34,026 nt of DNA from Bacteroidota bacterium (GTDB lineage: Bacteria > Bacteroidota > Bacteroidia > Bacteroidales > WCHB1-69). Numbering within the stretch: the stretch's first letter is position 1; the number at the start of each line of letters is the position of its first letter. Positions 108-32,160 of the stretch are shown one piece after another. The notes below the pieces were generated by a model. It saw only the letters and a program-made list of their open reading frames with translations. It did no database searches and was not told the origin of the DNA. Made by a program: the position numbers and the translations under genes. The DNA lies in NCBI GenBank assembly GCA_029570835.1, contig JAKPTX010000102.1, positions 1 to 34,026 on the forward strand, given 5' to 3'.

Positions 108-187
108 CCAGAGTGGGGAAATAAAATGACTATAAAGCGAATTATGATCTGCCCCCCTTTTTTTTTATTTCAAAAAGAAGAAAAAAA
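108..187 (+). repeat. dispersed ~85 bp element, copy A
   Basis: CCAGAGTGGGG at 108-118, a 30-nt AT-rich middle, CTGCCCCCC at 149-157, then a T-run and an A/G-rich tail (TTTATTTCAAAAAGAA). Three further copies lie at 6083-6168 (-), 29560-29641 (+) and 32080-32160 (-). The ends and the 30-31 nt spacing are conserved while the middle drifts, as expected of a dispersed non-coding element. The tail is almost identical to that of the copy at 32080-32160. Confidence 0.8.
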
Positions 188-193
188 TTAAAT

Positions 194-277
194 AAGTCGA
201 AAGTCGAAAAAAATAATTCTAAATTCTAAATTCTAAACTCTAAATTTAGGAATCGTAATTCGTAATTCGTAATTTTT
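194..277 (+). repeat. three consecutive heptamer tandem arrays
   Basis: AAGTCGA x2 plus a partial unit (194-210), TTCTAAA x4 (217-244, last unit CTCTAAA) and ATTCGTA x3 (251-271, first unit AATCGTA). Each unit is 7 bp. The same three arrays in the same order and orientation occur upstream of the ABC-F gene at 32227-32365. Confidence 0.85.
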
Positions 278-279
278 CA

Positions 280-287
280 TATCTTTG
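280..287 (+). promoter_or_regulatory. Bacteroidota -7 element for the VWA gene
   Basis: TATCTTTG matches TAnnTTTG and ends 19 bases before the ATG at 307. The 19 bases at 273-291 are identical to 12423-12441, the promoter of the cDPGS-like gene. Confidence 0.75.
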
Positions 288-306
288 CGGGTTAATTGAT
301 GACGAG

Positions 307-2394
307 ATGACTATTATCACTGAGTATCCTTTGTGGCTGATTATCTTTTGTTTACTGTTGGGAGGAGTCTATGCAGCTATTCTATACTATAAAAACAGAG
401 AGATCGATTTTGGAAAAAATTACAGAATTGCGTTGATTATACTGCGCTGGAGTGCCATCTCATTGGTCTCTTTTTTGCTTTTAGGACCATTAACCAAATT
501 AACCGTTAAAGAGTCTGAAAAACCGGTTATCGTGATTGGAGTTGATAATTCCGAATCGGTCATCTTATCAAAGGATTCTGCGTTTTATAAAACGGAATTG
601 ATTACTCAGCTCAAAAAATTGGAGGATCAATTGGATGGAAAGTATGAAGTAGTACCCTATCTGATTGGAAATCAATCCCGAAGAGGCAGCTTTGATGAAC
701 TCGATTATCAGGATAAGGCGACCAATATTTCCGATTTTTTTGATCAAATTGAACTGTTGTACACACATCGCAACTTAGGTGCTGTACTCCTGGTCAGTGA
801 TGGAATCTACAATCGCGGTTCTAATCCTTATTATCAAACACAAAAGATCAAATCTCCGATTTATACTGTAGGATTAGGCAATCCTGAAGCAGAACCGGAT
901 CTTTTTATTGCGCAAATTATACATAACAGACAGACCTTTAAAGGAAATCATTTCCCGGTAGAGATTAAGCTGGCAGCCAATAAGTTAAAGGGACAAAAAT
1001 TTAGTTTAACCATATCAGAAAACGGGAAAGAGTTAGTCAGGGAGAACTTTTCCATTAACTCAAATCAATACTATGAAACCTTCCGAACCACCCTGGAAAC
1101 CAAGGAAAAAGGGATCAAACGATATCAGGTGGAAGTAACTCCGCTGGAGGGTGAATTAACGCATAAAAACAACAAAAGCAACCTATATATTGAGGTGGTG
1201 GATCAGAAGGAGAAAATCGCCATTGTTTACAATGCGCCTCACCCTGATGTGGCTGCCATCAAGTCTGCACTGGATGTCGTTGAAAAATATGAAACGGAAG
1301 TCTATTCCATCGATAATTTTAATAAAAAGATTGACCCTTATTCACTGGTCATTCTTCATCAATTACCTTCTGTACGTAAGCCTGTGCAAGATTTAACTCA
1401 GGAACTTCAAAAACAAAAAAGATCTGTTCTCTATATCTTGGGACATAAAAGCGATTATGGCCGCATCAACAACCTTCAAACCGGGGTTACAATCAATCAG
1501 AACAAAAAACTAACCAATGAAGCGGCAGCACTTCACAACGATAATTTTATTCTTTTCTCTTACTCTGAAGAGCTAAAACAGTTTTTGCAAAGGGTTCCAC
1601 CGTTGATCACTCCTTTTGGAGAGTATAAAACTAGCGTTTCTGCTTCTACCTTTTTATATCAAAAAATTGGTGGCGTTGAAACCCCCTACCCTCTTATTCT
1701 GTTCAATGAAAATGTGGGGGTTAAGAATGGTGTGATTGTCGGGAGTGGTATCGCAGACTGGAAGAGATACAACTATCTTTATGAGCAGAATCATGAAGCA
1801 TTTAACGAGTTGATACAGAAGATGGTACTCTTTTTGTCCGTTAAAGGAGATCGTGACTTTTTCAGGGTTGAAGCCAAGAGTGGTTATGATGAATCTGAGC
1901 CGATTCAATTCTATGCTGACCTTTATAATGAGGCTTATGAACTTCAAAATGAGGCAGATGTGGAGCTAATCATTGAGTCTGAGGATGGCAAGAAATTCAG
2001 TTATCAATTCTCCAAACAGAATCGCAATTATAGCTTGTCTGTGGGGCATTTTCCTCCCGGAGAGTACCGTTGGCAGGCACAAGCTCAGTGGGGAAGCAAA
2101 AACTACCAGAAATCAGGACATTTTACCGTGAAGGAGATGATGCTGGAATCTCAAAACTTAGTTGCAGACCATGCATTGCTGCAAGGAATTGCCGATAATT
2201 CAAAGGGACAAATGATTTCTAAAGAGCAACTGTCAGAATTTGAAAAACTGATTAAAAAGGATGATCAAATCAAAACAGTAGCGACATATTCCAAGAAATT
2301 CTCACTATTACTCAACTCCACCATCTATTTTGTGATACTTATTTTATTATTTAGCGCTGAATGGTTTATCAGAAAATGGCGTGGTAGTTATTAG
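307..2394 (+). CDS. VWA-like membrane protein, 695 aa
   Basis: Two N-terminal membrane helices (about residues 8-28 and 40-62) lead into a von Willebrand A-like fold starting at VIVIGVDNSES, where DNSES resembles the DxSxS MIDAS metal site. A long extracytoplasmic region follows, and a C-terminal helix (about 665-685) ends in a basic tail. This architecture is seen in Bacteroidota and Planctomycetes membrane proteins encoded in MoxR/DUF58/BatA/DUF4159 clusters; the molecular function is not established. The next gene, 11 bp downstream, encodes a DUF4159 protein, which fits such a cluster, and a DUF58 gene occurs separately at 17776-18702. The start at 307 is the first in-frame ATG after the -7 element; an out-of-frame ATG at 299 opens only a 3-codon ORF. 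Product class is fairly sure, role unknown. Confidence 0.8.
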   Translation: MTIITEYPLWLIIFCLLLGGVYAAILYYKNREIDFGKNYRIALIILRWSAISLVSFLLLGPLTKLTVKESEKPVIVIGVDNSESVILSKDSAFYKTELITQLKKLEDQLDGKYEVVPYLIGNQSRRGSFDELDYQDKATNISDFFDQIELLYTHRNLGAVLLVSDGIYNRGSNPYYQTQKIKSPIYTVGLGNPEAEPDLFIAQIIHNRQTFKGNHFPVEIKLAANKLKGQKFSLTISENGKELVRENFSINSNQYYETFRTTLETKEKGIKRYQVEVTPLEGELTHKNNKSNLYIEVVDQKEKIAIVYNAPHPDVAAIKSALDVVEKYETEVYSIDNFNKKIDPYSLVILHQLPSVRKPVQDLTQELQKQKRSVLYILGHKSDYGRINNLQTGVTINQNKKLTNEAAALHNDNFILFSYSEELKQFLQRVPPLITPFGEYKTSVSASTFLYQKIGGVETPYPLILFNENVGVKNGVIVGSGIADWKRYNYLYEQNHEAFNELIQKMVLFLSVKGDRDFFRVEAKSGYDESEPIQFYADLYNEAYELQNEADVELIIESEDGKKFSYQFSKQNRNYSLSVGHFPPGEYRWQAQAQWGSKNYQKSGHFTVKEMMLESQNLVADHALLQGIADNSKGQMISKEQLSEFEKLIKKDDQIKTVATYSKKFSLLLNSTIYFVILILLFSAEWFIRKWRGSY

Positions 2395-2405
2395 GAACGT
2401 TTTTT

Positions 2406-3059
2406 ATGAAAAGTAGAGTTTTTTTATTTTTGTTTTTATTCATATTGGGGGGTGGACTGTGGCTCCAGGCTCAAACCATCGCTCTGTTAAAATATCGTGG
2501 CGGCGGGGACTGGTACGCGAATCCTACCTCATTGACCAATTTAATTGCCTTTTGCAACACTAACCTGGATATGAGCTTGAACCCTAACTATGAAACTGTA
2601 GAAGTGGGCAGTGTTGAGTTGTATCGCTATCCCTTTATCCACATGACCGGACATGGAAATGTGGTTTTTTCTGAAGATGAACTGAAGAATTTACGCAACT
2701 ACCTGATTGGGGGAGGATTTTTACATATTGACGACAACTATGGAATGAGTCCCTTTATTCTTCCGCAATTAAAAGCGCTTTTCCCGGAACTGGAGTTGGT
2801 AGAGCTGCCGTACAATCACCCTATTTTTAATCAGAAATATCAATTCAGGAACGGATTGCCCAAGATTCATGAGCATGACAACAAGCCTCCGCAAGCCTTC
2901 GGATTGATATGGGAAGGTCGGTTGGTTTGTCTGTTTACTTACGAATGTGACCTTGGAGACGGATGGGAGGATTATGAAGTTCACAAAGATTCACAAGAGA
3001 TCAGAACAAAAGCACTTCAAATGGGTGCAAATATTTTACAATATGTGTTTACACAATAA
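2406..3059 (+). CDS. DUF4159 domain protein, exported, 217 aa
   Basis: A hydrophobic signal peptide (residues 1-23, ending LQAQ) is followed by a full DUF4159 domain with the recognisable stretches LKYRGGGDWYANP, HMTGHGNVVFS, GGGFLHIDDNYG and ECDLGDGWEDYEV. The family is common in Bacteroidota, usually beside VWA, DUF58 and MoxR genes. Its fold is thought to resemble class I glutamine amidotransferases, but no enzymatic activity is known to me. It lies 11 bp after the VWA membrane protein and is surely cotranscribed with it. The rnf genes downstream have their own promoter at 3070-3077, so the pair is probably a functional unit separate from rnf. Confidence 0.85.
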   Translation: MKSRVFLFLFLFILGGGLWLQAQTIALLKYRGGGDWYANPTSLTNLIAFCNTNLDMSLNPNYETVEVGSVELYRYPFIHMTGHGNVVFSEDELKNLRNYLIGGGFLHIDDNYGMSPFILPQLKALFPELELVELPYNHPIFNQKYQFRNGLPKIHEHDNKPPQAFGLIWEGRLVCLFTYECDLGDGWEDYEVHKDSQEIRTKALQMGANILQYVFTQ

Positions 3060-3069
3060 TTTTTTTTTA

Positions 3070-3077
3070 TACTTTTG
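3070..3077 (+). promoter_or_regulatory. -7 element for rnfDGEA
   Basis: TACTTTTG matches TAnnTTTG in the 80 bp gap between the DUF4159 stop and rnfD. It shows that rnfD probably starts a transcript rather than following rnfC. Confidence 0.65.
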
Positions 3078-3139
3078 CAATCCTTAGTTAGTAAATTGGC
3101 TTAGAGTTTTATTTTTTAAAAAGATTTAAAAATAAATAT

Positions 3140-4135
3140 ATGAGTAATCGATTATTACAAATTTCAGGTTCTCCCCACATTCATAGCGGTGAAACTGTAA
3201 GAAAGATTATGTGGTCTGTTGTGATCGCTTTAATTCCTGCTTTTTTAGCCTCTGTCTTCTATTTCGGAGTACCTGTTATTATCGTGACCCTGGTTTCTGT
3301 CGGAAGTTGTTTATTGTTTGAGTATCTCATCCAACGCTTCTTACTCAAGGGAAAGAGTACTATTAGGGATGGATCAGCAGTCATCACAGGAGTACTGCTA
3401 GCTTTTAACCTTCCTTCCAATCTGCCCTTACACTGGGTTGTTTTGGGAGCCTTTGTAGCGATTGGTATAGGGAAAATGACCTTCGGGGGATTGGGAAAGA
3501 ATCCCTTCAATCCGGCATTGGTGGGACGTGTATTTTTATTGATTTCCAGACCAGTAGAAATGACCAACTGGCCTCTTCCGCAAGCCGGAAAACTGTTAGT
3601 GAGTCCTGATATGGCTACCACAGGAGCCACTATTTTGAGTGCTCTTAAAGAGGGTGTCAAAAGTGGTGAAAAAATGTCTGACCTCACAGCTAACTTACCC
3701 ACTTATGCTGAAATGTTATTAGGACAAAGAGGCGGTTCCATCGGAGAAATCTCCATTATTGCTCTGTTAATCGGTGCTCTGTTTTTATTAGCCAGAAAGG
3801 TTATTACCTGGCATATTCCTGTTGCCTTTTTAGGATCTGCTTACGTCTTAGCGGCCATTTTGTATGCTGTTAATCCGGAAATTTACATTCATCCGATATT
3901 ACACATGCTCAGTGGTGGTCTCATTTTAGGTGCATTCTTCATGGCTACCGATATGGCAACATCGCCGTCAACACCTTTAGGGATGATTATCTTTGGAGTC
4001 GGTTGTGGATTGCTGACGATTATAATCCGAGTCTTTGGAGCTTACCCGGAAGGAGTTTCATTTGCAATCCTACTCATGAATGCAGTGACACCTTTGATTA
4101 ACAGAGGGATCAAAACGAGTAAGTTCGGGAAGTAA
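3140..4135 (+). CDS. rnfD: Rnf complex subunit D
   Basis: Polytopic inner-membrane subunit of the Rnf ferredoxin:NAD+ oxidoreductase, which couples electron transfer to Na+ or H+ transport. Markers: N-terminal SPHIHSGETVRKIM, the conserved GLGKNPFNPALVGR stretch, about ten hydrophobic segments and the flavinylation motif TGAT at 161-164, where Thr164 should carry covalent FMN. Length 331 aa is normal for RnfD and shorter than the homologous NqrB, and the N-terminal motif is of the Rnf type. rnfG follows 42 bp downstream. The usual upstream neighbours rnfB and rnfC are missing; the gene before this one encodes a DUF4159 protein. Confidence 0.95.
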   Translation: MSNRLLQISGSPHIHSGETVRKIMWSVVIALIPAFLASVFYFGVPVIIVTLVSVGSCLLFEYLIQRFLLKGKSTIRDGSAVITGVLLAFNLPSNLPLHWVVLGAFVAIGIGKMTFGGLGKNPFNPALVGRVFLLISRPVEMTNWPLPQAGKLLVSPDMATTGATILSALKEGVKSGEKMSDLTANLPTYAEMLLGQRGGSIGEISIIALLIGALFLLARKVITWHIPVAFLGSAYVLAAILYAVNPEIYIHPILHMLSGGLILGAFFMATDMATSPSTPLGMIIFGVGCGLLTIIIRVFGAYPEGVSFAILLMNAVTPLINRGIKTSKFGK

Positions 4136-4177
4136 TCCCCCCATTTGACATTAACAAAATATTGTAAATCATAAAAC

Positions 4178-4828
4178 ATGGCAGCAAAAGAATCATCATT
4201 ACTAAAATTAGTGCTTACCTTAACGTTGGTATCACTATTTGCAGCAGCAGCCTTAGCGTCGGTGTATGTGATCACCAAAGAGCCGATTGCACAATCGTCT
4301 CAAAAGAAAAAATCTAATGCTATTCAGGCTATTATTCAATCATACAATCCTGAAACCGGGCATATTCAATCCGAAACTGTTAACATTGAAGGAGAAGAGG
4401 AGCCTGTAACGGTTCATATTGCTTATCAAGATGAAACAGTACTTGGAATTGCCGTTGAAACCTTTACCAACAAGGCTTTTGGAGGTCGTTTTGACATCAT
4501 GGTTGGATTTGATGTAGAAAACGATGTTGTTACCGGGACTGAAGTATTAAGTCATGGTGAAACCCCCGGTTTAGGTGATAAAATTGACAAAAAGAAAAGT
4601 GATTTTCCCACTCAATTCAACGGTAAAAACTTAGCCGAAATGAATTTAAAAGTAAAAAAAGAGGGAGGTGAAGTGGATGCTATTACTGCTGCAACCATCT
4701 CATCAAAAGCTTTTTGTGATGCCTTGGAAAGAGGACAAAAAGCTTATCTTTTAATCAAAGAAAAACTGAATTTGAATCCGGAGCAAGCAGCTTCAGAACC
4801 CAATAAAAATGAGGAGGCAGCATTATGA
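4178..4828 (+). CDS. rnfG: Rnf complex subunit G
   Basis: A single N-terminal membrane helix (about residues 9-32) anchors a periplasmic FMN-binding domain. GGRFDIMVGFD and SHGETPGLGDKI are typical of RnfG/NqrC, and the flavin attachment motif is DAITAATISS near residues 167-176, with Thr173 as the predicted covalent FMN site. A flexible Glu/Asn/Ala-rich tail follows. It accepts electrons within the Rnf chain. The stop overlaps the rnfE start in an ATGA arrangement, indicating translational coupling. Flavinylation would need an ApbE transferase, which is not in this window. Confidence 0.95.
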   Translation: MAAKESSLLKLVLTLTLVSLFAAAALASVYVITKEPIAQSSQKKKSNAIQAIIQSYNPETGHIQSETVNIEGEEEPVTVHIAYQDETVLGIAVETFTNKAFGGRFDIMVGFDVENDVVTGTEVLSHGETPGLGDKIDKKKSDFPTQFNGKNLAEMNLKVKKEGGEVDAITAATISSKAFCDALERGQKAYLLIKEKLNLNPEQAASEPNKNEEAAL

Positions 4829-5412
4829 GTAAATTATCCATTGTAACAAAAGGTTTTATTAAGGAAAACCCTGTATTGGTACTGGTTTTAGGAACCTGTC
4901 CCACCTTAGCTGTAACCACCTCGGTTGAAAATGGAATCGGGATGGGATTAGCAACCACATTTGTTCTTGTCTTATCCAATATGTTTATCTCATTGTTAAG
5001 AAAGATCACTCCTAACGAGGTAAGAATCCCTATTTTTATTGTGGTTATTGCTACATTTGTTTCGATTGTTGACCTGCTTATTCAGGGTTTTGTTCCTGCC
5101 TTAGCGGAAAGTTTGGGGCTTTTCATCCCGTTGATTGTGGTAAACTGTATTGTATTGGGTAGAGCCGAAGCTTTTGCCAGCAAAAATGGTGTTTTTGATT
5201 CGATGTTAGATGGTTTGGGAATGGGAATCGGTTTTACTATTGCCCTCGTAATCATTGGTACAGTAAGAGAGATTTTGGGTAGTGGTGCCATTTTAGGTTA
5301 TGAGATTCCTTTTATGAAAGGAAATGAGATACTCATTTTCGTTTTAGCTCCGGGAGCATTTTTCGTATTTGGTTATGTTATGGCTTTGGTCAGATTTCTT
5401 CAAAAAAAGTAA
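4825..5412 (+). CDS. rnfE: Rnf complex subunit E
   Basis: An integral membrane protein of 195 aa with six predicted helices and the family signatures NPVLVLVLGTCPTLAVTTS near the N-terminus and NCIVLGRAEAFASKN in mid-protein. The conserved Cys residues in these two stretches are those thought to bind the intramembrane iron-sulfur centre shared by RnfA and RnfE (NqrD/NqrE). It overlaps rnfG by 4 bp and is followed after 13 bp by rnfA. The adjacent RnfA paralog has FLGTCPFVGVS in place of LGTCPTLAVTTS, which separates the two names. Confidence 0.95.
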   Translation: MSKLSIVTKGFIKENPVLVLVLGTCPTLAVTTSVENGIGMGLATTFVLVLSNMFISLLRKITPNEVRIPIFIVVIATFVSIVDLLIQGFVPALAESLGLFIPLIVVNCIVLGRAEAFASKNGVFDSMLDGLGMGIGFTIALVIIGTVREILGSGAILGYEIPFMKGNEILIFVLAPGAFFVFGYVMALVRFLQKK

Positions 5413-5425
5413 AATATAGCGCGTT

Positions 5426-5998
5426 ATGTATTATATAATCATGATTATCGGTGCCGTTTTTGTGAACAACATTATTCTGGCACAATTTTTAGGAACCTGC
5501 CCCTTTGTTGGGGTTTCTAATAAGGTTTCTACTGCATCAGGAATGGGAGTAGCGGTGTTATTTGTGATGACCATTGCCACCCTGTTCACTTCTACCATCA
5601 ACTATTATATTTTGATGCCATTTGGTTTACAATTTCTCCAAACCATCACTTATATCTTAGTGATTGCAGCATTAGTACAAATGGTAGAGATGATATTAAA
5701 GAAAATCAGTCCCCCGCTATATCAGGCTTTAGGAGTATATTTACCTTTAATCACCACCAACTGTGCTGTTTTAGGGGTAGCCATTTTAGTTACCATGAAA
5801 GGCTACTCTATCATTGATTCCACATTGTACACCATGTTCAGCGCAGCCGGTTTCGCTATGGCAATCATTATTTTCGCCGGTATCAGAGAGCAGTTGGATC
5901 TGGTTGGTATTCCCAAAGGAATTCAGGGAGTTCCCAGTGCTTTAATTTTAGCAGGTATTTTAGCTTTGGCATTTATGGGATTCGCGAACCTCGTTTAG
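5426..5998 (+). CDS. rnfA: Rnf complex subunit A
   Basis: A 190 aa six-helix membrane subunit, paralogous and topologically inverted relative to RnfE. Signatures are NNIILAQFLGTCPFVGVS at the N-terminus and PLITTNCAVLGVAI in the middle, again with paired Cys residues for the intramembrane iron-sulfur cluster. It is the last gene of the D-G-E-A order, the normal rnf order in Bacteroidota and clostridia. No clear intrinsic terminator follows; the spacer after it is a repeat cluster. Confidence 0.95.
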   Translation: MYYIIMIIGAVFVNNIILAQFLGTCPFVGVSNKVSTASGMGVAVLFVMTIATLFTSTINYYILMPFGLQFLQTITYILVIAALVQMVEMILKKISPPLYQALGVYLPLITTNCAVLGVAILVTMKGYSIIDSTLYTMFSAAGFAMAIIIFAGIREQLDLVGIPKGIQGVPSALILAGILALAFMGFANLV

Positions 5999-6024: not shown

Positions 6025-6082
6025 GAGTAGGATTTTATGATTTTAGGATATATCCTATTGAAATTCAATTACTTCCAACTTT

Positions 6083-6168
6083 TTATTTCTTATTTCTTAT
6101 TTGGTATTTAAAATAAATGGGGGGCAGCATGGCGGTTGCTCCTTTTTTATTTCATTTCCCCACTCTGG
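6083..6168 (-). repeat. dispersed ~85 bp element, copy B
   Basis: Reverse orientation. On the minus strand it reads CCAGAGTGGGG (6168-6158), a 30-nt middle, CTGCCCCCC (6127-6119), then an AT-rich tail ending in three heptamers of TTATTTC type (6083-6103 on plus). The tail matches copy C at 29608-29641 better than copies A and D. With copy A it forms an inverted pair around the VWA-to-rnfA block. Confidence 0.8.
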
Positions 6169-6170
6169 AA

Positions 6171-6241
6171 AGGGGCTGCCCCTACAACCATGCGCTTTTT
6201 ATTAATTATTTTCAGGACAGGTCGCGACCTATCCCTACAAC
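6171..6241. repeat. two palindromic interspersed repeats
   Basis: AGGGG-CTG-CCCCT at 6171-6183 and a 12-bp perfect palindrome AGGTCGCGACCT at 6219-6230. On the minus strand both are entered by GTTGTAGGG, giving related units about 50 bp apart. The palindrome at 32032-32059 begins with the similar TGTAGAGA. Units of this type are, from memory, common between genes in Bacteroidota and cyanobacteria. Confidence 0.65.
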
Positions 6242-6268: not shown

Positions 6269-6359
6269 CGTAATTCGTAATTCGTAATTAATTTATTCCG
6301 CCTTCCGCCCTCCGCCTTCCGCCTTTTAATTCTACCTTCTACCTTCTTCCTTCTTCCTT
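6269..6359. repeat. three heptamer arrays: CGTAATT, CCGCCTT, CTACCTT
   Basis: CGTAATT x3 (6269-6289), CCGCCTT x4 (6298-6325, one unit CCGCCCT) and CTACCTT/CTTCCTT x4 (6332-6359). The last array stops just before the stop codon of the DUF2795 gene. All units are 7 bp, and all recur elsewhere in the window. Confidence 0.85.
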
Positions 6360-13976: not shown

Positions 13977-15575
13977 TTATAATATATCTTCTAACACTGC
14001 TTCATTTTGGTTGCTTGTTATTCCTATAACAATTGAAGATGAACTACTGACATATAGTATGACTGTTTGCTTTTCATTTTTAAAAACACTCATAGCCTCA
14101 GTAGATCGAATGTTGTCTTTCTTGTACCCTGATAACGATCTTTCCATTGCATCTTTCAAATCCTTTGCTTTACCGTTACCTCTTCCGGAAAGATCAATCC
14201 TATATGCATAGCCTTGAATATCTGCATTCGGATTAAATATCATATCTCCGTCAACTTCCTCATAAGCATTTGCAAAAACAGAAAAAGTAAACTCTGCATC
14301 ATACGTAATTTGTCTATCATTGATTAAAGTATGCCTATTCCAATATTTACTAAAGTTATGTTCTCCTAAATAAAGCTCGGTAGTAATGTCAGATATTTTG
14401 CTATATAATGATAAACCTTCCGGTGTATTAACATTAATACGCTTCACTATTGGTATAACATTAAAAAGATCAGTTTGTACACTTTCATAATCGGAACAAC
14501 TACCATGAAACATGTACAACATTAGCTCTTCTGTGATACCATCAAATTGAGGATTTTCTTCATAATTACCATCGGCATCGATAAGTCCATACTTACCATC
14601 GCTTTTAACTAAAGCCAGTTTCCCAACGTATGGTAGTGCCTTATCGAATTGAGGATTAATGACAATTTTACCTTTACTATCAATGTAACCCCATTTTTCA
14701 CCCAATCGTACAGCGGCTAATTTTCCTCCTCTAAAAGGGAAAGCTTCTTCAAACTGAGGATTGATGATTATTTTCCCTTTTTTATCACACCAGCCAAATT
14801 TTCGATTTTGTCTAATTAGATATTTATCACCATCCTTTACCATAAATGAAAATTGAGGTTTAATTACATATTTACCTTTTTTATTAATTACACCCGCCCC
14901 TCCATCTGAAAAAACAACGGCTTTTCCATCAATAAATTCTTTTGCATCTATAAACTGAGGGTCAATGATTGTTTTTCCCTTTTTATCAATATATCCCCAT
15001 CCACCATTTTCAAATTCAACCGCACATTTTCCATCAGAAAAATTACCTGTATTTAAAAATTGCGGGTCAATTTTAACCTGACCGGTTTTATCAACAAAGC
15101 CCCATCTTAATTTGGTGCCCCATTTTGATACATTAGTATCCATTATACAAAATGCAGCTAAGCCTTCCTTAAAAACATTTACTATTTCTGCATTTTGTAA
15201 AGTAAACTGAATTTTCCCTTTAGTATTAATTGCTGTGGGAGGAGCATTATCAGAAATGACCCAAGCTAAACCATCACCAAAAACAGTAGCATCCTTATAA
15301 TTGGCAGCAATTGCATACAGCCCATCTTCTGAGATAAAACCCCATTTGGGTTCATCATAAGATGATCTTACTAATGCTAAGCCATCGCGAAAAATTGTAA
15401 CTCTACTAAACTGTGGATTAATTGCAATTTTACCCTCCCTATCAATATACTGATAATAGTCCCCACTTTCCACAGGAATTAATTTGATTTCTGAAACACC
15501 TTTACTCCCACCACCACATGATGAGATAAAGCAAATAGCAATCAAAATTGCAAAAAAATGTAATCTTCTCTTCAT
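13977..15575 (-). CDS. WG-repeat lipoprotein, 532 aa
   Basis: A signal peptide with lipobox ISSC (Cys at residue 20, followed by GGGSKG) predicts a lipoprotein. About ten WG repeats fill residues 35-350, with the pattern WGYIDKKGKxxINPQF and an FxDGLAxV strand. The C-terminal ~180 residues lack the repeat and show a mixed alpha/beta pattern with no family I recognise. WG proteins are common in Bacteroidota and probably bind ligands or partners at the envelope; no enzyme activity is evident. The gene is more AT-rich than its neighbours and stands alone, with its stop facing the terminator at 13861-13905. Upstream is a ~150 nt leader from a promoter at 15733-15740. Confidence 0.85.
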   Translation of the reverse strand: MKRRLHFFAILIAICFISSCGGGSKGVSEIKLIPVESGDYYQYIDREGKIAINPQFSRVTIFRDGLALVRSSYDEPKWGFISEDGLYAIAANYKDATVFGDGLAWVISDNAPPTAINTKGKIQFTLQNAEIVNVFKEGLAAFCIMDTNVSKWGTKLRWGFVDKTGQVKIDPQFLNTGNFSDGKCAVEFENGGWGYIDKKGKTIIDPQFIDAKEFIDGKAVVFSDGGAGVINKKGKYVIKPQFSFMVKDGDKYLIRQNRKFGWCDKKGKIIINPQFEEAFPFRGGKLAAVRLGEKWGYIDSKGKIVINPQFDKALPYVGKLALVKSDGKYGLIDADGNYEENPQFDGITEELMLYMFHGSCSDYESVQTDLFNVIPIVKRINVNTPEGLSLYSKISDITTELYLGEHNFSKYWNRHTLINDRQITYDAEFTFSVFANAYEEVDGDMIFNPNADIQGYAYRIDLSGRGNGKAKDLKDAMERSLSGYKKDNIRSTEAMSVFKNEKQTVILYVSSSSSIVIGITSNQNEAVLEDIL

Positions 15576-15732
15576 TTTCGTTTATTTTAGATAATCCTAC
15601 TCATATGGCTTTTCGGAATACGCCCGTTTTTTTAGTGGTTCTGACTCCACCTTACAAGTTAATAATACCCGTCTTGAACATATAATAAGTAAAATTCCTT
15701 AAGAATATCCACCTAATTAGCAACATGAGTGG

Positions 15733-26454: not shown

Positions 26455-26477
26455 ATGGAAAAAATCATCTTTTTAAG

Positions 26478-26551: not shown

Positions 26552-26566
26552 AACTTTTTTGAGCGG

Positions 26567-26574: not shown

Positions 26575-26580
26575 CAAAAA

Positions 26581-27453
26581 TTATTCTACATCCAACACCT
26601 CTACTTCAAAAACAATTGTAGTATAGGGAGGAATAACCCCACCGGCACCTCTTTCTCCGTATGCTAACTTGGAAGGAATGATAAATCTGGCTTTTTCTCC
26701 CTCTTGCATTAATTGTAAACCTTCTTCCCAACCGGCAATCACTTGTCCTTTACCTACCTCTAACTCAATAGGCTCATCTCTGGAATAAGAACTATCAAAA
26801 ACAGTTCCATCCAAAAGTGTTCCTGTATAATGTACGGTTACATGAGACCCATTTTTAATTTTCTTTCCTTTTCCGGAAGCTAATTTAATATAGTATAAAC
26901 CGCTGGATGTTGGTTTTACAGTTACTTTATTGTCGGTTAAATAATTTGTCAATAAAGAATCTTCACTATTTTTAAAGGTTTCCAACATCTCCTCATATTC
27001 TCTTCTGCGTTCTGCTTGCTCCTTTTCAACCTCTTCCATACTCATAATTTTATCCAATTTGATATCGAAATAAAGAGGCTCTTCACCAAACGGATATTCC
27101 TGACCAAAGAAATAGTGGAAAATAGAATCGCCATTTAAAATAAAAGTAGCACTATCACCCACATGCATTTTTTTAATTGCAGCATAAAAGTCACCTTTAA
27201 ATGCGGACTCAACAATTTGATCACGTGTTGGAATGGTAGGAATAATGGTTGAATCTGTAGTTCTTACAGTCAATTTTAACTCTACAATATCCCCCTCTTC
27301 AGGTTGGTCTGCTTTTTTATTTTCAATGTGAAATTTGTAATAAAAATCCTCTTTTTTGTCTCTTTTAAAACCTTTGTATTTTGAACAAGAGATAGCACTC
27401 ACAACCATGATTGCGATCAGTGCAATGGATACAATTTTTGAATAATTTTTCAT
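26581..27453 (-). CDS. FKBP-type peptidyl-prolyl isomerase lipoprotein
   Basis: A 290 aa protein with a lipoprotein signal (lipobox SAISC, Cys at 23). The N-terminal domain (about 35-150) looks like a degenerate FKBP fold with KKMHVGDSATFIL. A charged helical linker follows. The C-terminal canonical FKBP domain (about 185-290) includes VTVHYTGTLLDGTVFDSSY, GQVIAGWEEGLQLMQEGEKA, IPSKLAYGERGAGGVIPP and the closing FEVEVLDVE strand, all with the usual active-site aromatic residues. It is likely a periplasmic or outer-membrane folding factor. It follows the GldI-like gene by 8 bp and ends the nrnA operon. Confidence 0.94.
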   Translation of the reverse strand: MKNYSKIVSIALIAIMVVSAISCSKYKGFKRDKKEDFYYKFHIENKKADQPEEGDIVELKLTVRTTDSTIIPTIPTRDQIVESAFKGDFYAAIKKMHVGDSATFILNGDSIFHYFFGQEYPFGEEPLYFDIKLDKIMSMEEVEKEQAERRREYEEMLETFKNSEDSLLTNYLTDNKVTVKPTSSGLYYIKLASGKGKKIKNGSHVTVHYTGTLLDGTVFDSSYSRDEPIELEVGKGQVIAGWEEGLQLMQEGEKARFIIPSKLAYGERGAGGVIPPYTTIVFEVEVLDVE

Positions 27454-27461
27454 TTTTTGAT

Positions 27462-28010
27462 TTAATTTAGGTTATTTGATTTATTTTTATTAACTGTTAT
27501 AAAATAGACGATTGATTGTTGTCCTGTTACCTTATATCCATCGCCTGCTATCCCATAAGCCAGGTATGAAGGAACAATTAAGCGCACCTGATCTCCATAT
27601 CTGAGATAGGTCATCGCCTCATGCAATCCGGTAATAGCATCACTTTTATTCACTTTAAAGATAATCGGTCCATCCTGTTTTGAAGAATAGAGCGAATCTC
27701 CATTTAAGAGCATCGACTGATATTCGAGAGAGACTTCATCTCCTTCTTGAATAGTTTCACCACTCCCCTTTTTAGTTACCTGATATCTCAATCCTGTTCC
27801 GGTTTTAATCATATCCCAACCATATCTTTGAATAAAAAGCTCTATCTCTTCCGCTTCTAATAGAATCATTTTTTGATTTCCTCTTTCCAGGGGGGTGCCA
27901 ACCTGTTTCTCCTTGGTTTCGACTTTAGCAATCTCTCCCGAAGGAGCCGACTCCTTGCAAGCATATCCAAAAAAAAGGAATAACAGCAATATAATCCCAA
28001 CTATTCTCAT
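27462..28010 (-). CDS. GldI-like FKBP lipoprotein
   Basis: A 182 aa lipoprotein (lipobox FGYAC, Cys at 18) with one FKBP domain: YGWDMIKTGTGLRYQV, GDEVSLEYQSMLLNGDSLYSS, SDAITGLHEAMTYLRYGDQ and VPSYLAYGIAGDGYK. The pattern, especially the WDMIKTGTGLRY lead-in and the nrnA-FKBP-FKBP gene order, resembles GldI, the gliding-associated isomerase of Flavobacteriia. GldI-type proteins also occur in non-gliding Bacteroidota, and no other gld gene is in the window, so gliding is not implied. Its start overlaps the nrnA stop in an ATGA arrangement. Confidence 0.87.
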   Translation of the reverse strand: MRIVGIILLLFLFFGYACKESAPSGEIAKVETKEKQVGTPLERGNQKMILLEAEEIELFIQRYGWDMIKTGTGLRYQVTKKGSGETIQEGDEVSLEYQSMLLNGDSLYSSKQDGPIIFKVNKSDAITGLHEAMTYLRYGDQVRLIVPSYLAYGIAGDGYKVTGQQSIVYFITVNKNKSNNLN

Positions 28011-29029
28011 ACCTTAAACTTCTTCAATTCGGGATGATTTCTAACTACTTCCTGGAAGTAGAGAATTGTATTTTCCAATGTATCGTAGTGATATGCCGCA
28101 GCAGCATTTTTATGTCCTCCTCCATCAAAATAGCGTGATGCAAACTGATTTACATCAAATTGATCTTTAGATCTGAAAGAGATCCTTATTCTGTTGCGTT
28201 TTTCGGTAAAAAAGGCAGTAAACTGGGCACAGCTCAATGACAACCCATAGTTAACAAAACCTTCGGTATCTCCAATTTTATAGTCGTTTTCAAATAAATC
28301 ATCCCTGGTTAGAAAGAGATAAGTGGTGCCATAATCTCTCATCACAACCATATTCTTAAGGGCTACTCCCAGCAATCTCAATCTGCTTTCCGAATAGTTG
28401 TCGTATACCAATCTGTGGATCAACTCACCATCTACACCAATCTCCATCAACTCCTTTAAAATTTCGTAAATTAAGGGCCTGTTACAAGAATAACTCAATG
28501 AACCCGTATCGGTAATCATTCCGGTATAGATGCAATTGGCGTACTCTAACGACAACGGAGCATCCGGATAAAGTTCTTTAAAAAAGCGGAACACCAATTC
28601 TGAAGCTGAAGTAGATTCAATCGTTGAGTATAACAAGCCTGCTTCACATATTGGATTGGGATGATGATCTATCATTATTTTATAGGCACCGGTATTTTTC
28701 ACAATCGATTCCAATTCTCTTCCTGCACGGTGTGCAGCATTCATATCTGCAATAAAAAGAATGTCAGCCGACTCAATAATTTCACGTGCTTTATCAAACT
28801 CCGTAGCTGCAATCACAATCTCATCACTGTTAGGCATCCAGGTCAAATAAGAAGGAAAAACATTAGGCACAACTACATCCACATGGTGCCCTTTTGCTCT
28901 CATTAGGAGCGAAATTGCCAAAGAAGAACCTAATGCATCCCCATCGGGATTATAGTGCGTAGTAACTGCAATCTTCTTATTACCAGAAAGTTGTAAGATC
29001 AAATCCGCTTTTTGTCGTTCTGTCAGCAT
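28007..29029 (-). CDS. nrnA: DHH-family phosphoesterase NrnA
   Basis: A 340 aa bifunctional oligoribonuclease and pAp phosphatase. DHH domain motifs: THYNPDGDALGSS (His25, Asn27, Asp29, Asp31), IADMNAAHR, IDHHPNP and TDTGSLSYS. The DHHA1 domain ends with RYFDGGGHKNAAAA. It degrades nanoRNA and recycles pAp from sulfur and CoA metabolism in the cytoplasm. It is the first gene of the unit with two FKBP lipoproteins, overlapping the next by 4 bp, and has a -7 element 18 bp upstream. Length is typical. Confidence 0.94.
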   Translation of the reverse strand: MLTERQKADLILQLSGNKKIAVTTHYNPDGDALGSSLAISLLMRAKGHHVDVVVPNVFPSYLTWMPNSDEIVIAATEFDKAREIIESADILFIADMNAAHRAGRELESIVKNTGAYKIMIDHHPNPICEAGLLYSTIESTSASELVFRFFKELYPDAPLSLEYANCIYTGMITDTGSLSYSCNRPLIYEILKELMEIGVDGELIHRLVYDNYSESRLRLLGVALKNMVVMRDYGTTYLFLTRDDLFENDYKIGDTEGFVNYGLSLSCAQFTAFFTEKRNRIRISFRSKDQFDVNQFASRYFDGGGHKNAAAAYHYDTLENTILYFQEVVRNHPELKKFKV

Positions 29030-29046
29030 ACAATGAATTTAACCTG

Positions 29047-29054
29047 CAAACATA
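29047..29054 (-). promoter_or_regulatory. -7 element for the nrnA operon
   Basis: TATGTTTG on the minus strand, 17 bases before the nrnA ATG. A heptamer array begins 6 bp further upstream. Confidence 0.7.
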
Positions 29055-29060
29055 CAAAAA

Positions 29061-29116
29061 AATTACGAATTACGAATTACGAGGTCGTAAATTGAAAATT
29101 GAAAGTTGAAAATTGG
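29061..29116. repeat. heptamer arrays AATTACG and ATTGAAA
   Basis: AATTACG x3 at 29061-29081, the reverse complement of the ATTCGTA family at 251 and 32335. ATTGAAA x3 at 29091-29111 (third unit GTTGAAA) is a family seen only here. Confidence 0.8.
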
Positions 29117-29155
29117 CAAATACTTCATATATCTCATTGATAATCATATCAATAA

Positions 29156-29419
29156 CCACGTCCTTTAGGGCGTGGATTAGAATACCCCCAAGATACCCAG
29201 GGCTTTAGCCCAAATTTACAATAATATCAAATGTGAAGTGAGAAATTTAAAATAAGATAAAACAAATCATAACACGCTAATAATCAAATATATAATTCCA
29301 TAATCCAAAATTTGCCCTCCAAAATCAAAATAACCCCAAAAAGGGGAACATTATAATAAATTTGGGCTAAAGCCCTATATCGCGATGGGCAATTTTCCTC
29401 CCCAACCTAAAGGTTGGGG
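29156..29419. repeat. REP-like palindrome cluster, MITE-like
   Basis: Four hairpins share a TTTA or TAAA loop: CCACGTCC-TTTA-GGGCGTGG (29156-29175), GGGC-TTTA-GCCC (29200-29211), GGGC-TAAA-GCCC (29364-29375) and CCCCAACC-TAAA-GGTTGGGG (29400-29419). The inner two lie in perfect 20-bp inverted repeats, AGGGCTTTAGCCCAAATTTA at 29199-29218 and its complement at 29357-29376, bounding 178 bp without a gene. This is like REP sequences moved by RAYT-type transposases; no transposase is in the window. Confidence 0.7.
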
Positions 29420-29475
29420 CTATTGATGAGCTTGATTTTCAGGGAGTTATGCTTAACATTACCTCAACCCAAAAA

Positions 29476-29528
29476 TTTCGACTTTCGACTTTCGACTTTC
29501 GACTTTTTTAGGTTCGTAATTCGTAATT
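29476..29528. repeat. heptamer arrays TTTCGAC and TTCGTAA
   Basis: TTTCGAC x4 at 29476-29503, the reverse complement of the AAGTCGA family, then TTCGTAA x2 at 29513-29526. They lie between the REP-like cluster and element copy C. Confidence 0.85.
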
Positions 29529-29559
29529 AACACTACCTTTCTAAAAAGCTTTAATGTTT

Positions 29560-29641
29560 GAGAGTGGGGAAATAGCATAACAATAAAGGGAAACATAATC
29601 TGCCCCCATTTATTTAAATTTCCAAATAAGAAAGAAGAAAT
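29560..29641 (+). repeat. dispersed ~85 bp element, copy C
   Basis: GAGAGTGGGG at 29560-29569, a 30-nt middle, CTGCCCCC at 29600-29607, then an AT-rich tail with heptamer-like AAATAAG/AAAGAAG units. It has one C fewer than the other copies. The tail is nearest to copy B. With copy D it forms an inverted pair around the subtilase gene. Confidence 0.8.
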
Positions 29642-29678
29642 ATGAAGTAAAGGAGAACAGACTTACCAAAAAAATCTA

Positions 29679-29686
29679 TACTTTTG
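29679..29686 (+). promoter_or_regulatory. -7 element for the subtilase gene
   Basis: TACTTTTG followed by C, 20 bases before the ATG at 29707. Confidence 0.7.
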
Positions 29687-29706
29687 CATACATAAAAATC
29701 AACAAC

Positions 29707-31959
29707 ATGAAACGTATAATTTTAGCTTTTTTAACTTTAGTGCTGGTAAATGGTCTTTTTTCGCAAAACATTTATTGGGTCTATTTTACAGATAAAAATG
29801 AAACCACTTTTGATCCTTACTCTTATTTCGATACCAAGGCGATTGAAAGACGGGTGCAGCAGAATATTTCTCTTTTCGATATGACAGATTTTCCTTTGAA
29901 TAATAATTACAAAGAACAGGTGATCAATTTATCGGAAGAGTTTGTTGGAGAAACACGCTGGTTTAACGCCGTTGCCGTTGCCATTACGGATGAGAATTTA
30001 CCCTTGGTTCAAGAATTACCTTTTGTAAAAGATGTTGAACGAATCGAAACGGAAGGGAAATTGGCAACCTACAAGGATCATTTCTCAGATTCGTTTGAAA
30101 TGAGTCATGATACCGGTGAAAAAGTTGGAATTTTACCGCAACTTGAACGTTTTGAAGGAGATCTGTTTGTTCAAAATCAGATCGATGGAAAAGGAATACG
30201 GATTGCTGTTTTCGATGGCGGATTTCCCGGAGTGGATAAACACGAAGCTTTTACTCATTTGCGTGAGAATAATCGGATTATTAAAACCTGGAATTTCCCA
30301 TTAAAAAAAGAGGATGTTTACGGTTGGAACTCGCATGGAACGATGGTTTTGAGTTGTATTGCCGGCATCCAAAATGGGAAAAAGATGGGATTAGCCACCG
30401 GAGCAGAGTTTTTATTGGCTCGTACGGAAATCAACACGGAACCTGCCAAGGAAGAAGTTTGGTGGATGCAAGCTGTCGAATGGGCGGATAAAAATGGAGC
30501 CAATGTCATCAATAGTTCGCTGGGATACGGAAAATCACGCTACTACGTAGAAGATATGGATGGAAAGCAGTCGTTGGTTAGCAAAGCAGCCAATATGGCG
30601 GCAGCAAAAGGAATGTTAGTCTGCAACGCTATGGGTAATGAAGGGGATGACAAAGCATGGCGCACATTGATTACTCCTGCTGATGCCGACAGTATTTTAT
30701 CCGTTGGCGGTCTTAACCCTGCAACAGATAAACGCATCTATTTTAGCTCTTTTGGTCCTACTGCAGACGGAAGACTCAAACCCAATGTAGTGGCTTTCGG
30801 TACTGCTGATGTGGCTAAACCCCGAGGCGGCTATACTAACGCACCCGGAACTTCGTTTTCCAGTCCGTTGGTAGCCGGTTTTGTGGCTTGTGCATGGCAA
30901 ACTCGTCCGCAACTTACAGCTATGGAATTGAAAGCCGAAATTGAAAAATCGGCAGATCTTTATCCCTATTTTGATTATCAATATGGCTACGGAGTTCCAC
31001 AAGCCAGCTACTTTATCAACCAAACAGCTCAAACGATGGAGTCATCCCGGATTACTTTTACACAAAGTGAAAGCTCCATATTTGTTACCATAACTCCTGA
31101 TGAAAACGGCAAGAACAATACTACCCTATTGCTTCATGTTCAAAAACCGGACGGACAACTGAGACAATATTGGGATGTTGAATTCTCCGATTTATCTTCA
31201 ATGGTTTATCCTCTCGATAAATCCAAAATTGAGAATGGTGATATCTTGCGCGTTTATTATCAAAAAGAAGTTAAAGAGTTACGTTACGGGACAGATATTA
31301 TACCCAAAGATGAAACTAATAAATCCGATACATATAACTATTCTGTGAAATATATTCCTCAGAAAAACGAAAAACTTTCTGCTTTTGGGGTATTGTCCAA
31401 ATATTACCTCTATCCATACATATCGTGGGGATTTATAACTCCTCCTTTTCATGGATCGGATTATCAAATGAGGTATGGCAAATCGCAATCATTCATGTTT
31501 GGTGTACGCTTTAAAGGGAATGTTTGCAAATGGTACAATCTCGGGTTCAGTGCAGAAATTGGATACAACAAGTTCCATGTCAAAAACTTTGAGGGCAGTC
31601 AGTCGTTCCACACTGAGTACCTTCGAACATCGCTGTTGAATCTGGAGTTCTATCAACGTTTCAGGTTAGTACCTGATGAAGGATTGGGCGTCTATTTTGA
31701 CACCGGTATTTACGGATCCTGGGTGTTTGCCAATAAACATTTCATGAAAGAGAAATTAGATCCTAAGATTATCAGAACTGAAACACGGGGTAACATTCAA
31801 GGATTTAATCCTTTGCAATGGGGAGTCCGCGCCCGATTCGGATACAATTTCATTGCCCTATACGGACAGTATCGTTTTTCGGATCTGTTTAATGACAAAA
31901 TGGGCAAAACAGAATTACCCAAATTAGAAGTTGGAATGGAGTTGGCTTTCCCCTTCTAA
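29707..31959 (+). CDS. S8 subtilisin-like protease with C-terminal barrel-like domain
   Basis: A 750 aa exported protein with signal peptide residues 1-20 (LVNGLFSQ), an N-terminal prodomain-like region to about 150 and a peptidase S8 catalytic domain to about 440. The triad is Asp170 (AVFDGG), His210 (NSHGTMV) and Ser383 (GTSFSSP), with Asn311 in GNEG for the oxyanion hole. A beta-rich spacer (about 450-550) precedes some 190 residues with alternating strands, many aromatic residues and the terminal LEVGMELAFPF. This resembles a small outer-membrane beta-barrel rather than the type IX secretion tail often seen on Bacteroidota proteases. It may be a surface-anchored, autotransporter-like protease. 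It stands alone, bracketed by inverted repeat elements. Confidence 0.9.
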   Translation: MKRIILAFLTLVLVNGLFSQNIYWVYFTDKNETTFDPYSYFDTKAIERRVQQNISLFDMTDFPLNNNYKEQVINLSEEFVGETRWFNAVAVAITDENLPLVQELPFVKDVERIETEGKLATYKDHFSDSFEMSHDTGEKVGILPQLERFEGDLFVQNQIDGKGIRIAVFDGGFPGVDKHEAFTHLRENNRIIKTWNFPLKKEDVYGWNSHGTMVLSCIAGIQNGKKMGLATGAEFLLARTEINTEPAKEEVWWMQAVEWADKNGANVINSSLGYGKSRYYVEDMDGKQSLVSKAANMAAAKGMLVCNAMGNEGDDKAWRTLITPADADSILSVGGLNPATDKRIYFSSFGPTADGRLKPNVVAFGTADVAKPRGGYTNAPGTSFSSPLVAGFVACAWQTRPQLTAMELKAEIEKSADLYPYFDYQYGYGVPQASYFINQTAQTMESSRITFTQSESSIFVTITPDENGKNNTTLLLHVQKPDGQLRQYWDVEFSDLSSMVYPLDKSKIENGDILRVYYQKEVKELRYGTDIIPKDETNKSDTYNYSVKYIPQKNEKLSAFGVLSKYYLYPYISWGFITPPFHGSDYQMRYGKSQSFMFGVRFKGNVCKWYNLGFSAEIGYNKFHVKNFEGSQSFHTEYLRTSLLNLEFYQRFRLVPDEGLGVYFDTGIYGSWVFANKHFMKEKLDPKIIRTETRGNIQGFNPLQWGVRARFGYNFIALYGQYRFSDLFNDKMGKTELPKLEVGMELAFPF

Positions 31960-32004
31960 AGGTAGAAGGTAGAAGGTAGAAGGATAAATTGATTTCGGAT
32001 TTCG
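31960..32004. repeat. heptamer arrays AGGTAGA and GATTTCG
   Basis: AGGTAGA x3 plus AGG (31960-31983) begins at the very base after the subtilase stop codon. It is the reverse complement of the array at 6332. GATTTCG x2 follows at 31991-32004, the family of 6003-6016. Confidence 0.8.
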
Positions 32005-32031
32005 GGTTATAAATTAAAATTGAACGTGGCT

Positions 32032-32059
32032 GTAGAGACGCAATGCATTGCGTCTTTAC
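32032..32059. repeat. palindromic interspersed repeat
   Basis: A perfect 18-bp palindrome GACGCAATGCATTGCGTC at 32037-32054, extended on both sides to GTAGA...TTTAC with one mismatch. It is a type of repeat common between genes in Bacteroidota and related in its TGTAG entry to the units at 6171-6241. Confidence 0.75.
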
Positions 32060-32079
32060 GGCAATTTCTGATTTTATAT

Positions 32080-32160
32080 TTTTGTTTTTCTTTTTGAAAT
32101 AAAAAAAATGGGGGGCAGAATAATGTTTTCCATTTTTGTCATTTTATTACCCCACTCTGG
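32080..32160 (-). repeat. dispersed ~85 bp element, copy D
   Basis: On the minus strand CCAGAGTGGGG (32160-32150), a 31-nt middle, CTGCCCCCC (32118-32110), then a T-run and TTTATTTCAAAAAGAA tail. It is closest to copy A, including the middle (TAATAAAATGAC against AAATAAAATGAC). Confidence 0.8.

What the first reader, a model, noticed from the sequence alone, without database searches (positions are those of the whole stretch)
108..32160. Four copies of an undescribed-looking ~85 bp element with fixed G/C ends
Copies at 108-187 (+), 6083-6168 (-), 29560-29641 (+) and 32080-32160 (-) share GAGTGGGG, a middle of 30, 30, 30 and 31 nt, CTGCCCCC(C) and an A/T-rich tail. The ends and spacing are held while the middle drifts. 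In three copies the 3' side reads CCCCATTT, which can pair with GAGUGGGG as RNA using G-U wobbles, so a folded RNA or a protein-bound DNA hairpin is possible. Tail sequence divides them into A/D and B/C subfamilies. No coding potential is evident.
Basis: partly seen in the sequence, partly recalled or inferred. Interest (0 to 1): 0.7.

Follow-up and report, generated by a model that had tools for sequence, protein, structure and literature searches.

The report
Shuffling intergenic repeat with fixed octamers
Two related Bacteroidales genomes each carry more than a hundred copies of a short spacer-DNA element whose two 8-letter ends hardly ever change, while the pieces between and around them have been exchanged from place to place, so that each copy is a patchwork.

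Summary
The four copies are real and belong to a large family: 125 exact copies in the window's genome, 154 in a same-genus genome (UBA5429 by contig match), one in another genus, none in the other 57 of 60 genomes searched. The ends are nearly frozen: in 698 kb of contiguous sequence 58 copies are exact and five intergenic near-variants were seen, while middles average 63% identity. The element is modular: head (U), cassette middle (M) between the octamers, tail (T). At 33 orthologous loci U, M and T were retained 8, 14 and 11 times, in patterns not distinguishable from independence; similarity is linked within modules, weakly across the left octamer, not across the right one. Near-identical middles occur at different loci of one genome with flanks that change within six bases of the octamers (13 of 16 pairs). 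Copies sharing an intergenic region lay head to head, tails towards the genes, in 18 of 18 pairs. Folding and covariation give no support for a structured RNA. Best reading: a new modular interspersed repeat, like BIME or BOX in spirit, that evolves by short-tract copying between loci with switch points at the octamers. Mechanism and function are inferred; no enzyme was found.

The parts
111..156 (+). copy A, cassette GAGTGGGG-N30-CTGCCCCC
   Evidence: exact match; orthologue L168:16581 keeps the upstream part, middle and tail differ
85..110 (+). copy A, head side (U, proximal 26 nt)
   Evidence: alignment A1; U identity 0.97 with the orthologue
157..198 (+). copy A, A/T-rich tail (T)
   Evidence: alignment A1
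6120..6165 (-). copy B, cassette GAGTGGGG-N30-CTGCCCCC
   Evidence: middle and tail retained, upstream part different in orthologue L168:10599
6078..6119 (-). copy B, tail (T) running into GAANNNN heptads
6166..6191 (-). copy B, head side: a G/C hairpin module (gtaggggcagcccc)
29562..29607 (+). copy C, cassette GAGTGGGG-N30-CTGCCCCC
   Evidence: only the middle is retained in orthologue L175:13664, both flanks differ
29536..29561 (+). copy C, head side (U)
29608..29649 (+). copy C, tail (T)
32111..32157 (-). copy D, cassette GAGTGGGG-N31-CTGCCCCC
   Evidence: only the tail is retained in orthologue L175:16290, whose near head and middle equal those of another locus of G000, L150:16853
32069..32110 (-). 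copy D, tail (T)
32158..32183 (-). copy D, head side (U)
32190..32219 (+). heptad array (AATTACG) on the head side of copy D
   Evidence: such arrays beside many copies, and genome-wide
29476..29506 (+). heptad array (TTTCGAC) upstream of copy C

Best explanation
It is a high-copy modular intergenic repeat confined, as far as searched, to one genus: head module U, a cassette bounded by GAGTGGGG and CTGCCCCC with a middle M of 28-32 nt (30 in 134 of 198 copies), and an A/T-rich tail T. Shown: where synteny could be read, nearly all loci have a copy in the same place and orientation in both species, while U, M and T differ piecemeal; similarity between copies is linked within modules, weakly across the left octamer and not across the right one. 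Inferred: pieces are copied non-reciprocally between dispersed copies (gene conversion or template switching), and the copy is switched at the octamers, the only stretches shared by all. Inferred further: the octamers stay frozen because something still recognises each copy (a DNA-binding protein or the exchange process itself). The rule 'heads together, tails to the genes' suggests that the element marks the edges of intergenic DNA, perhaps as a boundary against transcription running into the next gene; this last step is a guess.
For: Copy number 125 and 154, zero in the reversed control. Synteny readable for 37 of 101 G000 copies and 37 of 102 G001 copies: 34 and 33 have a copy in the same orientation (with stricter anchors 27 of 29). 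Of 34 orthologous pairs 33 were scored: U/M/T retained 8/14/11; patterns xxx 11, xRx 7, xxR 5, RRx 3, xRR 2, RxR 2, RRR 2, Rxx 1, against 9.6, 7.1, 4.8, 2.3, 3.5, 1.5, 1.1, 3.1 expected for independence; no pair of modules is associated (Fisher p 0.24, 0.72, 0.39). Mantel r within U 0.27-0.36, within T 0.20-0.35, within M 0.17; across the left octamer 0.15 and 0.11; across the right octamer -0.04 and 0.06 (p 0.86, 0.07); orthologous pairs: Spearman 0.50, 0.61, 0.47 within modules, 0.19 and -0.12 across octamers (p 0.28, 0.51). 16 pairs of loci within one genome share a middle at 96% or more; in 13 the unbroken identity ends within 6 nt of both octamers, and the tail is alike (0.90 or more) in only 1, a tandem duplication. 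Octamer constancy. Head-to-head rule, 18 of 18; tail side nearer a gene in 120 of 165, median 140 against 273 bp.
Against: The left octamer is a leaky boundary: linkage across it is weak but significant (p 0.001 and 0.008), and heads are alike in 3 of 16 within-genome pairs with the same middle, against 1.2% of all pairs. At least one orthologous pair (L148/L261) differs by a patch inside M. Thirty-three pairs are few, so modest linkage would be missed. Switch points must fall where copies are alike, so finding them at the octamers does not show that the octamers cause the switch. Only copy D's partner has a recognisable donor with a shared flank. Both genomes are draft assemblies. A profile search gave 39 inexact hits besides 76 exact ones; 8 with E below 1e-5 (5 intergenic, 3 in ORFs), and 10 of the 31 weaker ones are intergenic, so distant relatives without intact ends may exist.
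Confidence: 0.58

Rival explanations
1. A dedicated exchange system: the octamers are recognition sites of a recombinase, or of a single-strand- or RNA-templated copying process, that moves the 46-bp cassette between loci.
For: Near-constancy of all 16 end bases against about 63% identity of the middle; near-identical cassettes at separate loci of one genome, with flanks that change within 6 nt in 13 of 16 pairs; a few middles of quite different sequence lie between the same octamers (C92:88353 and C104:6481, C25:137).
Against: No enzyme stands out: the Y1 transposase search (PF01797) found none in G001, which has 154 copies; reverse transcriptases (PF00078) occur in 6 of 12 genomes searched, also in genomes without the element, and the three that I read look like two group II intron enzymes and one defence-type enzyme (recognised from memory, not by a search; a second G000 one was not read). 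Other recombinase families were not searched.
Confidence: 0.17
2. A functional boundary element (terminator-like or protein-binding site) under purifying selection at each locus; the shuffling is a by-product of many similar copies.
For: Frozen ends and near-fixed spacing; tails lie nearer the gene in 120 of 165 and pairs are always head to head; a C-run followed by T-rich sequence resembles an intrinsic terminator in the sense direction; the pneumococcal SPRITE repeat is terminator-like and gene-proximal (PMC3049150, passages seen).
Against: Folding is no better than shuffles. The terminator scan of 29300-32500 reported sites on the antisense strand at copies C and D and none on the sense strand, but it allows loops of 3-8 only and so could not see the sense stem. 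The gene beside the tail points along the element in 74 cases and against it in 91.
Confidence: 0.16
3. A transposing miniature element (MITE, or REPIN moved by a RAYT transposase): head-to-head pairs are its inverted ends.
For: Inverted pairs, intergenic, high copy; REPINs are inverted REP doublets (PMC3116915, passages seen).
Against: No palindromic fold of the unit is supported; pair spacing varies from 80 to 625 bp; no Y1 transposase found in G001; loci are mostly shared between the two species; the two loci without a counterpart show other module chains, not a clean empty site.
Confidence: 0.06
4. Assembly artefact: repeats joined wrongly in draft genomes.
For: Several G001 contigs begin or end close to a copy (for example C1:99, C3:76, C25:137).
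Against: Both flanks of the swapped pieces are syntenic in both genomes, so two compensating misjoins per locus would be needed; shared middles with different flanks also occur within G001, rated 1% contaminated.
Confidence: 0.03

Closest known systems
BIME / REP / REPIN (Enterobacteria, Pseudomonas)
   Same: short, intergenic, high copy, mosaic, often as inverted pairs (93% of 430 doublets, PMC3116915, passage seen); gene conversion has been suggested for REP (title of a 1988 review, seen in that paper's reference list)
   Different: no palindromic fold, no Y1 transposase found in G001, modules bounded by two fixed octamers about 30 nt apart, pair spacing variable
BOX elements of Streptococcus pneumoniae
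   Same: modular, 125 in one genome, nearly confined to close relatives (PMC3049150, passages seen)
   Different: BOX varies by the number of boxB units and has terminal inverted repeats, target duplications and predicted folds; here one middle module of near-fixed length is exchanged and no fold is supported
SPRITE repeats of Streptococcus pneumoniae
   Same: A/T-rich, gene-proximal, terminator-like outline
   Different: SPRITE has an 18-bp duplex; here four G-C pairs around a loop of over 30 nt
vls and pilin cassette conversion (recalled; of vls only a listing was seen)
   Same: works by copying cassettes; constant short repeats at the cassette ends are recalled
   Different: no coding cassette, no single expression site, copies dispersed over the genome

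Membership tests
REP/REPIN with RAYT | palindromic core that folds | tested here: not met
   four pairs, no covariation; z between 0.14 and -1.47
REP/REPIN with RAYT | Y1 (RAYT) transposase in the genome | tested here: not met
   0 matches in G001 (98% complete, 154 copies); 2 in G000
REP/REPIN with RAYT | inverted doublets | tested here: met
   20 of 20 adjacent pairs (18 of 18 without two that involve an in-gene match) are head to head; most of the 203 fetched copies are single
BOX | A-B-C modules with a variable number of B units | tested here: not met
BOX | strong RNA secondary structure | tested here: not met
MITE | terminal inverted repeats and target-site duplication | tested here: inconclusive
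   the two ends of a unit share only GGGG/CCCC as inverted sequence; two loci lacking a counterpart show different module chains
any Rfam family | score above the gathering threshold | tested here: not met
   window: only a tRNA and a DUF805 RNA elsewhere; three loci with further copies; one sub-threshold hit away from the copy
BIME-like mosaic repeat (works like) | independently combined modules in intergenic DNA | tested here: met

The most novel reading that the evidence does not exclude
The octamers are the recognition sites of an active, dedicated cassette-copying system: 46-bp cassettes are written from locus to locus across more than a hundred intergenic sites, copies that lose an octamer drop out, and the head-to-head rule reflects how the machinery reads an intergenic region. 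I know of no described genome-wide exchange system of this kind for non-coding cassettes.
Probability: 0.2. Interest if true: 0.87.

Novelty: new variant of a known kind. Interest (0 to 1): 0.62.

Why it matters
How bacterial interspersed repeats arise, stay alike and spread is a long-standing question. Here one family lets it be read directly: dozens of orthologous loci in two species, three modules each, sharp boundaries and few decayed copies. It is a measurable case of intergenic DNA that evolves largely by exchange of short modules rather than by point mutation alone, and it names the 16 bases whose partner should be looked for.

Tried and rejected
RNA hypothesis: folding, consensus folding, pair extension and Rfam gave little or no support. 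Promoter reading of the head (a TATAAT-like stretch shortly before GAGTGGGG): weak in the column counts and absent from copies whose head is a hairpin or heptad module; not pursued. Chi-like motif: 40 of 48 GAGTGGGG and 40 of 52 CTGCCCCC in 0.4 Mb (both strands) belong to exact elements; eight scrambled octamers occur 0-8 times, so there is no excess elsewhere. Y1 transposase and reverse transcriptase as drivers. Viral contigs: none for the longer pattern; plasmids: no match for one 321-base stretch. Profile search over 41 genomes: besides G000, G001 and G003, five genomes have one match each with E 3e-4 to 9e-4, not inspected; at most 91 candidates per genome were scored. Inexact profile hits in ORFs were treated as chance, except that three (L144, L147, L176) score better and were left open. 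The exact match inside an 874-aa ORF in both species (L158:4291, L173:9790) reads as ordinary protein (judged by eye) and is taken as chance; it is still in the counts, was dropped, and leaving it out together with the poorly anchored pairs does not change the picture (29 pairs, retained 7, 13, 10).

Rows dropped and choices: 5 of 203 copies with short or N-containing flanks; one of 34 orthologous pairs (L158:18977/L174:4022, Ns). Thresholds for 'retained' (0.82/0.86/0.88) were set by eye near the 98.5th percentiles of non-orthologous pairs (0.875/0.839/0.90); with those percentiles the head is retained in only 4 of 29. Two G000 loci were matched to one G001 copy (L253:3678). G001 stretches outside C1, C2, C7, C12 and C15 were fetched around known copies, so the same-orientation rates are upper estimates. 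Of the 30 pairs the 14 between genomes may include orthologues that the synteny step missed, so I rest on the 16 within genomes. The lists of copies are capped; the totals 125 and 154 are the tool's counts, and 101 and 102 copies were fetched and analysed.
Full report
OBSERVATION. In the whole genome G000 (2.92 Mb, 277 contigs) the pattern GAGTGGGG-N20-45-CTGCCCCC occurs 125 times, the reversed control never. A same-genus genome, G001, has 154. Its contig C1 has the same length (59,853) and the same pair of matches 243 bases apart as a record of 'Bacteroidales bacterium UBA5429', so I take it to be that genome. A second same-genus genome, G002 (65% complete), has none, G003 (another genus of the family) has one, and the other 56 of the 60 genomes searched have none. 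A sequence profile of 80 copies adds only weak single matches in five further genomes (E 3e-4 to 9e-4, not inspected) and confirms one good copy in G003 (E 1.2e-18). That copy sits on a 10-kb contig that also carries heptad arrays of the kind found in the window's genus, among them the only GAATTAC triple found in G003; the contig may be mis-binned or transferred.

ANATOMY. Conservation covers a head (about 25 nt, consensus ..CnAAAAnGnnTAATATTCCA), GAGTGGGG, a middle of 30 nt in 134 of 198 copies (range 28-32), CTGCCCCC, and an A/T-rich tail of about 45 nt that often runs into GAANNNN heptads. In part of the copies the head is another intergenic module, such as a G/C hairpin or heptads. With ORFs of at least 110 aa, 165 of the 203 fetched copies lie between two ORFs, 33 at the end of a stretch and 5 inside an ORF: two in one 119-aa ORF, one in a 134-aa ORF, and the two orthologous matches in an 874-aa ORF that reads as ordinary protein.

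ORIENTATION RULE. Where two copies share an intergenic region in the fetched stretches, all 20 pairs are in the order minus, plus: heads towards each other, tails towards the genes. Without the two pairs that involve the in-gene match, 18 of 18 remain, 8 in G000 and 10 in G001, some of them orthologous. The tail side is nearer to an ORF in 120 of 165 copies (median 140 against 273 bp); that ORF points along the element in 74 and against it in 91.

FROZEN ENDS. Counting copies without demanding exact ends, in contiguous stretches only (314 kb of G000, 384 kb of G001), gives 22 and 36 exact copies. Intergenic near-copies with at most two mismatches are few: one with CTCCCCCC (L166), one with AAGCGGGG (L148), and three of a GAGGAGGGG type that carry an extra hairpin. 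Three more near-matches lie in ORFs (L144, L147, L176), and three listed rows are exact copies read two bases out of register. At three control spacings no pair has fewer than two mismatches (over all fetched stretches one such pair appears at a control spacing). The middle averages 63% identity between copies. Against a clean picture: a profile search of 0.79 Mb gave 39 inexact hits besides 76 exact ones; 8 have E below 1e-5 (5 intergenic, 3 in ORFs), and of the 31 weaker ones 10 are intergenic. These share mainly the C-run and the tail and may be distant relatives or chance.

MODULES ASSORT INDEPENDENTLY. For 198 copies with complete flanks the pairwise similarities of head, middle and tail are almost uncorrelated (r 0.08, 0.04, 0.00). 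With 12-nt windows anchored on the octamers, similarity is linked within the head (0.27-0.36), the tail (0.20-0.35) and the middle (0.17), weakly across the left octamer (0.15, p 0.001; 0.11, p 0.008) and not across the right one (-0.04, p 0.86; 0.06, p 0.07), in each genome separately.

EXCHANGE AT ORTHOLOGOUS LOCI. In the window itself, compared with G001: copy A keeps its head but has a different middle and tail; copy B keeps middle and tail but has a different upstream part; copy C keeps only the middle; copy D keeps only the tail. D's partner in G001 has 44 nt of head and the middle identical to another locus of G000 (L150:16853), with identity ending 4 nt after the right octamer. Over all stretches 33 of 34 orthologous pairs could be scored: head retained 8, middle 14, tail 11, in patterns not distinguishable from independence, though with so few pairs modest linkage would be missed. 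Half-modules are concordant (Spearman 0.50, 0.61, 0.47) and neighbours across octamers are not (0.19, -0.12). Synteny could be read for 37 of 101 G000 copies and 37 of 102 G001 copies; 34 and 33 have a copy in the same orientation, 2 and 3 only an opposite one, 1 and 1 none (with stricter anchors 27 same and 2 opposite of 29). The two 'none' loci show different chains of modules rather than a clean empty site.

CASSETTES AT DIFFERENT LOCI. Thirty pairs not scored as orthologous share a middle at 96% or more; 16 are within one genome. In 13 of these 16 the unbroken identity ends within 6 nt of both octamers; the tail is alike (0.90 or more) in 1, a tandem duplication in L250, and the head in 3. 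One example: two copies 3.2 kb apart on one contig (L155:9897 and 13099) have identical middles, and identity ends at once on the left and after two bases on the right. Over all 30 pairs, tail similarity beside the shared middle is near background (0.75 against 0.72) and head similarity is raised (0.67 against 0.48). So M is uncoupled from T and partly coupled to U.

RNA OR NOT. Five copies fold about as well as their shuffles; the alignment gives four G-C pairs and no covariation. Because copies were chosen by exact octamers, the invariance of those pairs says nothing for or against pairing. Short tail hairpins are slightly better than mononucleotide shuffles (mean z -1.14, 100 of 198 copies), which is weak for such composition. 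No Rfam match falls on a copy.

MECHANISM. The simplest account is copying of short tracts between dispersed copies. The octamers are the only stretches common to all copies, so switches there are expected of any homology-dependent process; what such a process does not explain by itself is why the octamers stay frozen. Either each copy is functional, or copying depends on them. I found no enzyme: no Y1 transposase match in G001, reverse transcriptases not special to the two genomes; other recombinases were not searched. Misassembly would need two compensating errors per locus.

COMPARISON. It works like a mosaic interspersed repeat. REPINs are inverted doublets of REPs tied to RAYTs (PMC3116915, passages); BOX is modular and as numerous (PMC3049150, passages). 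It fails defining features tested for each. Searches for related descriptions: (listings), with passages read; the string GAGTGGGGAAAT was found in two human-disease papers only, and three heptad-derived strings in none. The library lacks most subscription papers and holds no preprints, so an earlier description cannot be excluded.

Noticed in passing
window 190-274, 6269-6359, 29061-29115, 29476-29506, 31959-31983, 32190-32400 and throughout L142-L261: Tandem 7-mers that nearly always contain GAA (GAANNNN): 139 arrays of three or more exact units in 0.70 Mb of G000 and 111 in 0.73 Mb of G001, against at most 13 for any other period from 4 to 12; 236 of 246 and 181 of 190 arrays of 17 nt or more contain GAA. 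A different heptamer, TAACTGA, is described from Beggiatoaceae, Cyanobacteria and five Bacteroidetes (PMC4679880, passages seen).
   Followed up: partly
L271-L279 (G035), L284-L285 (G010); 27 stretches of viral contigs (L292-L318): AATTACG heptad arrays occur in another genus of the family and in viral contigs; the exact octamer pattern is absent from G035 and G010. One array (L273) seems to lie in a reading frame, judged by eye.
   Followed up: partly
L280 (G003:C74): One 10-kb contig of another genus carries a copy of the element and heptads like those of the window's genus; mis-binned or transferred.
   Followed up: partly
L145:3620-3990 and L259:7200-7650; L206:3050-4100 and L249:3250-3760: Whole intergenic regions between orthologous genes are different chains of the same repeated words (heptads, G/C hairpins, octamer elements), while the flanking sequence aligns.
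   Followed up: partly
L155:10200-10330, L164:16840-16970, L177:1930-2065: Three copies have GAGGAGGGG preceded by a hairpin CCACCCCGCCCTTCGGGCACCCCTCC, as if another repeat had entered the left octamer region.
   Followed up: no
L144:16540-16605, L147:12647-12724, L176:5562-5618: Three near-copies lie on the sense strand of ORFs; insertion or chance was not settled.
   Followed up: no
L054, L082, L093: Clostridia bacterium RGIG5350 has an unrelated dispersed hairpin repeat that happens to fit the pattern.
   Followed up: no
window 15590-15655 (-): DUF805 RNA (RF03081), listed by Rfam as cis-regulatory, upstream of the ORF 13977-15575(-).
   Followed up: no
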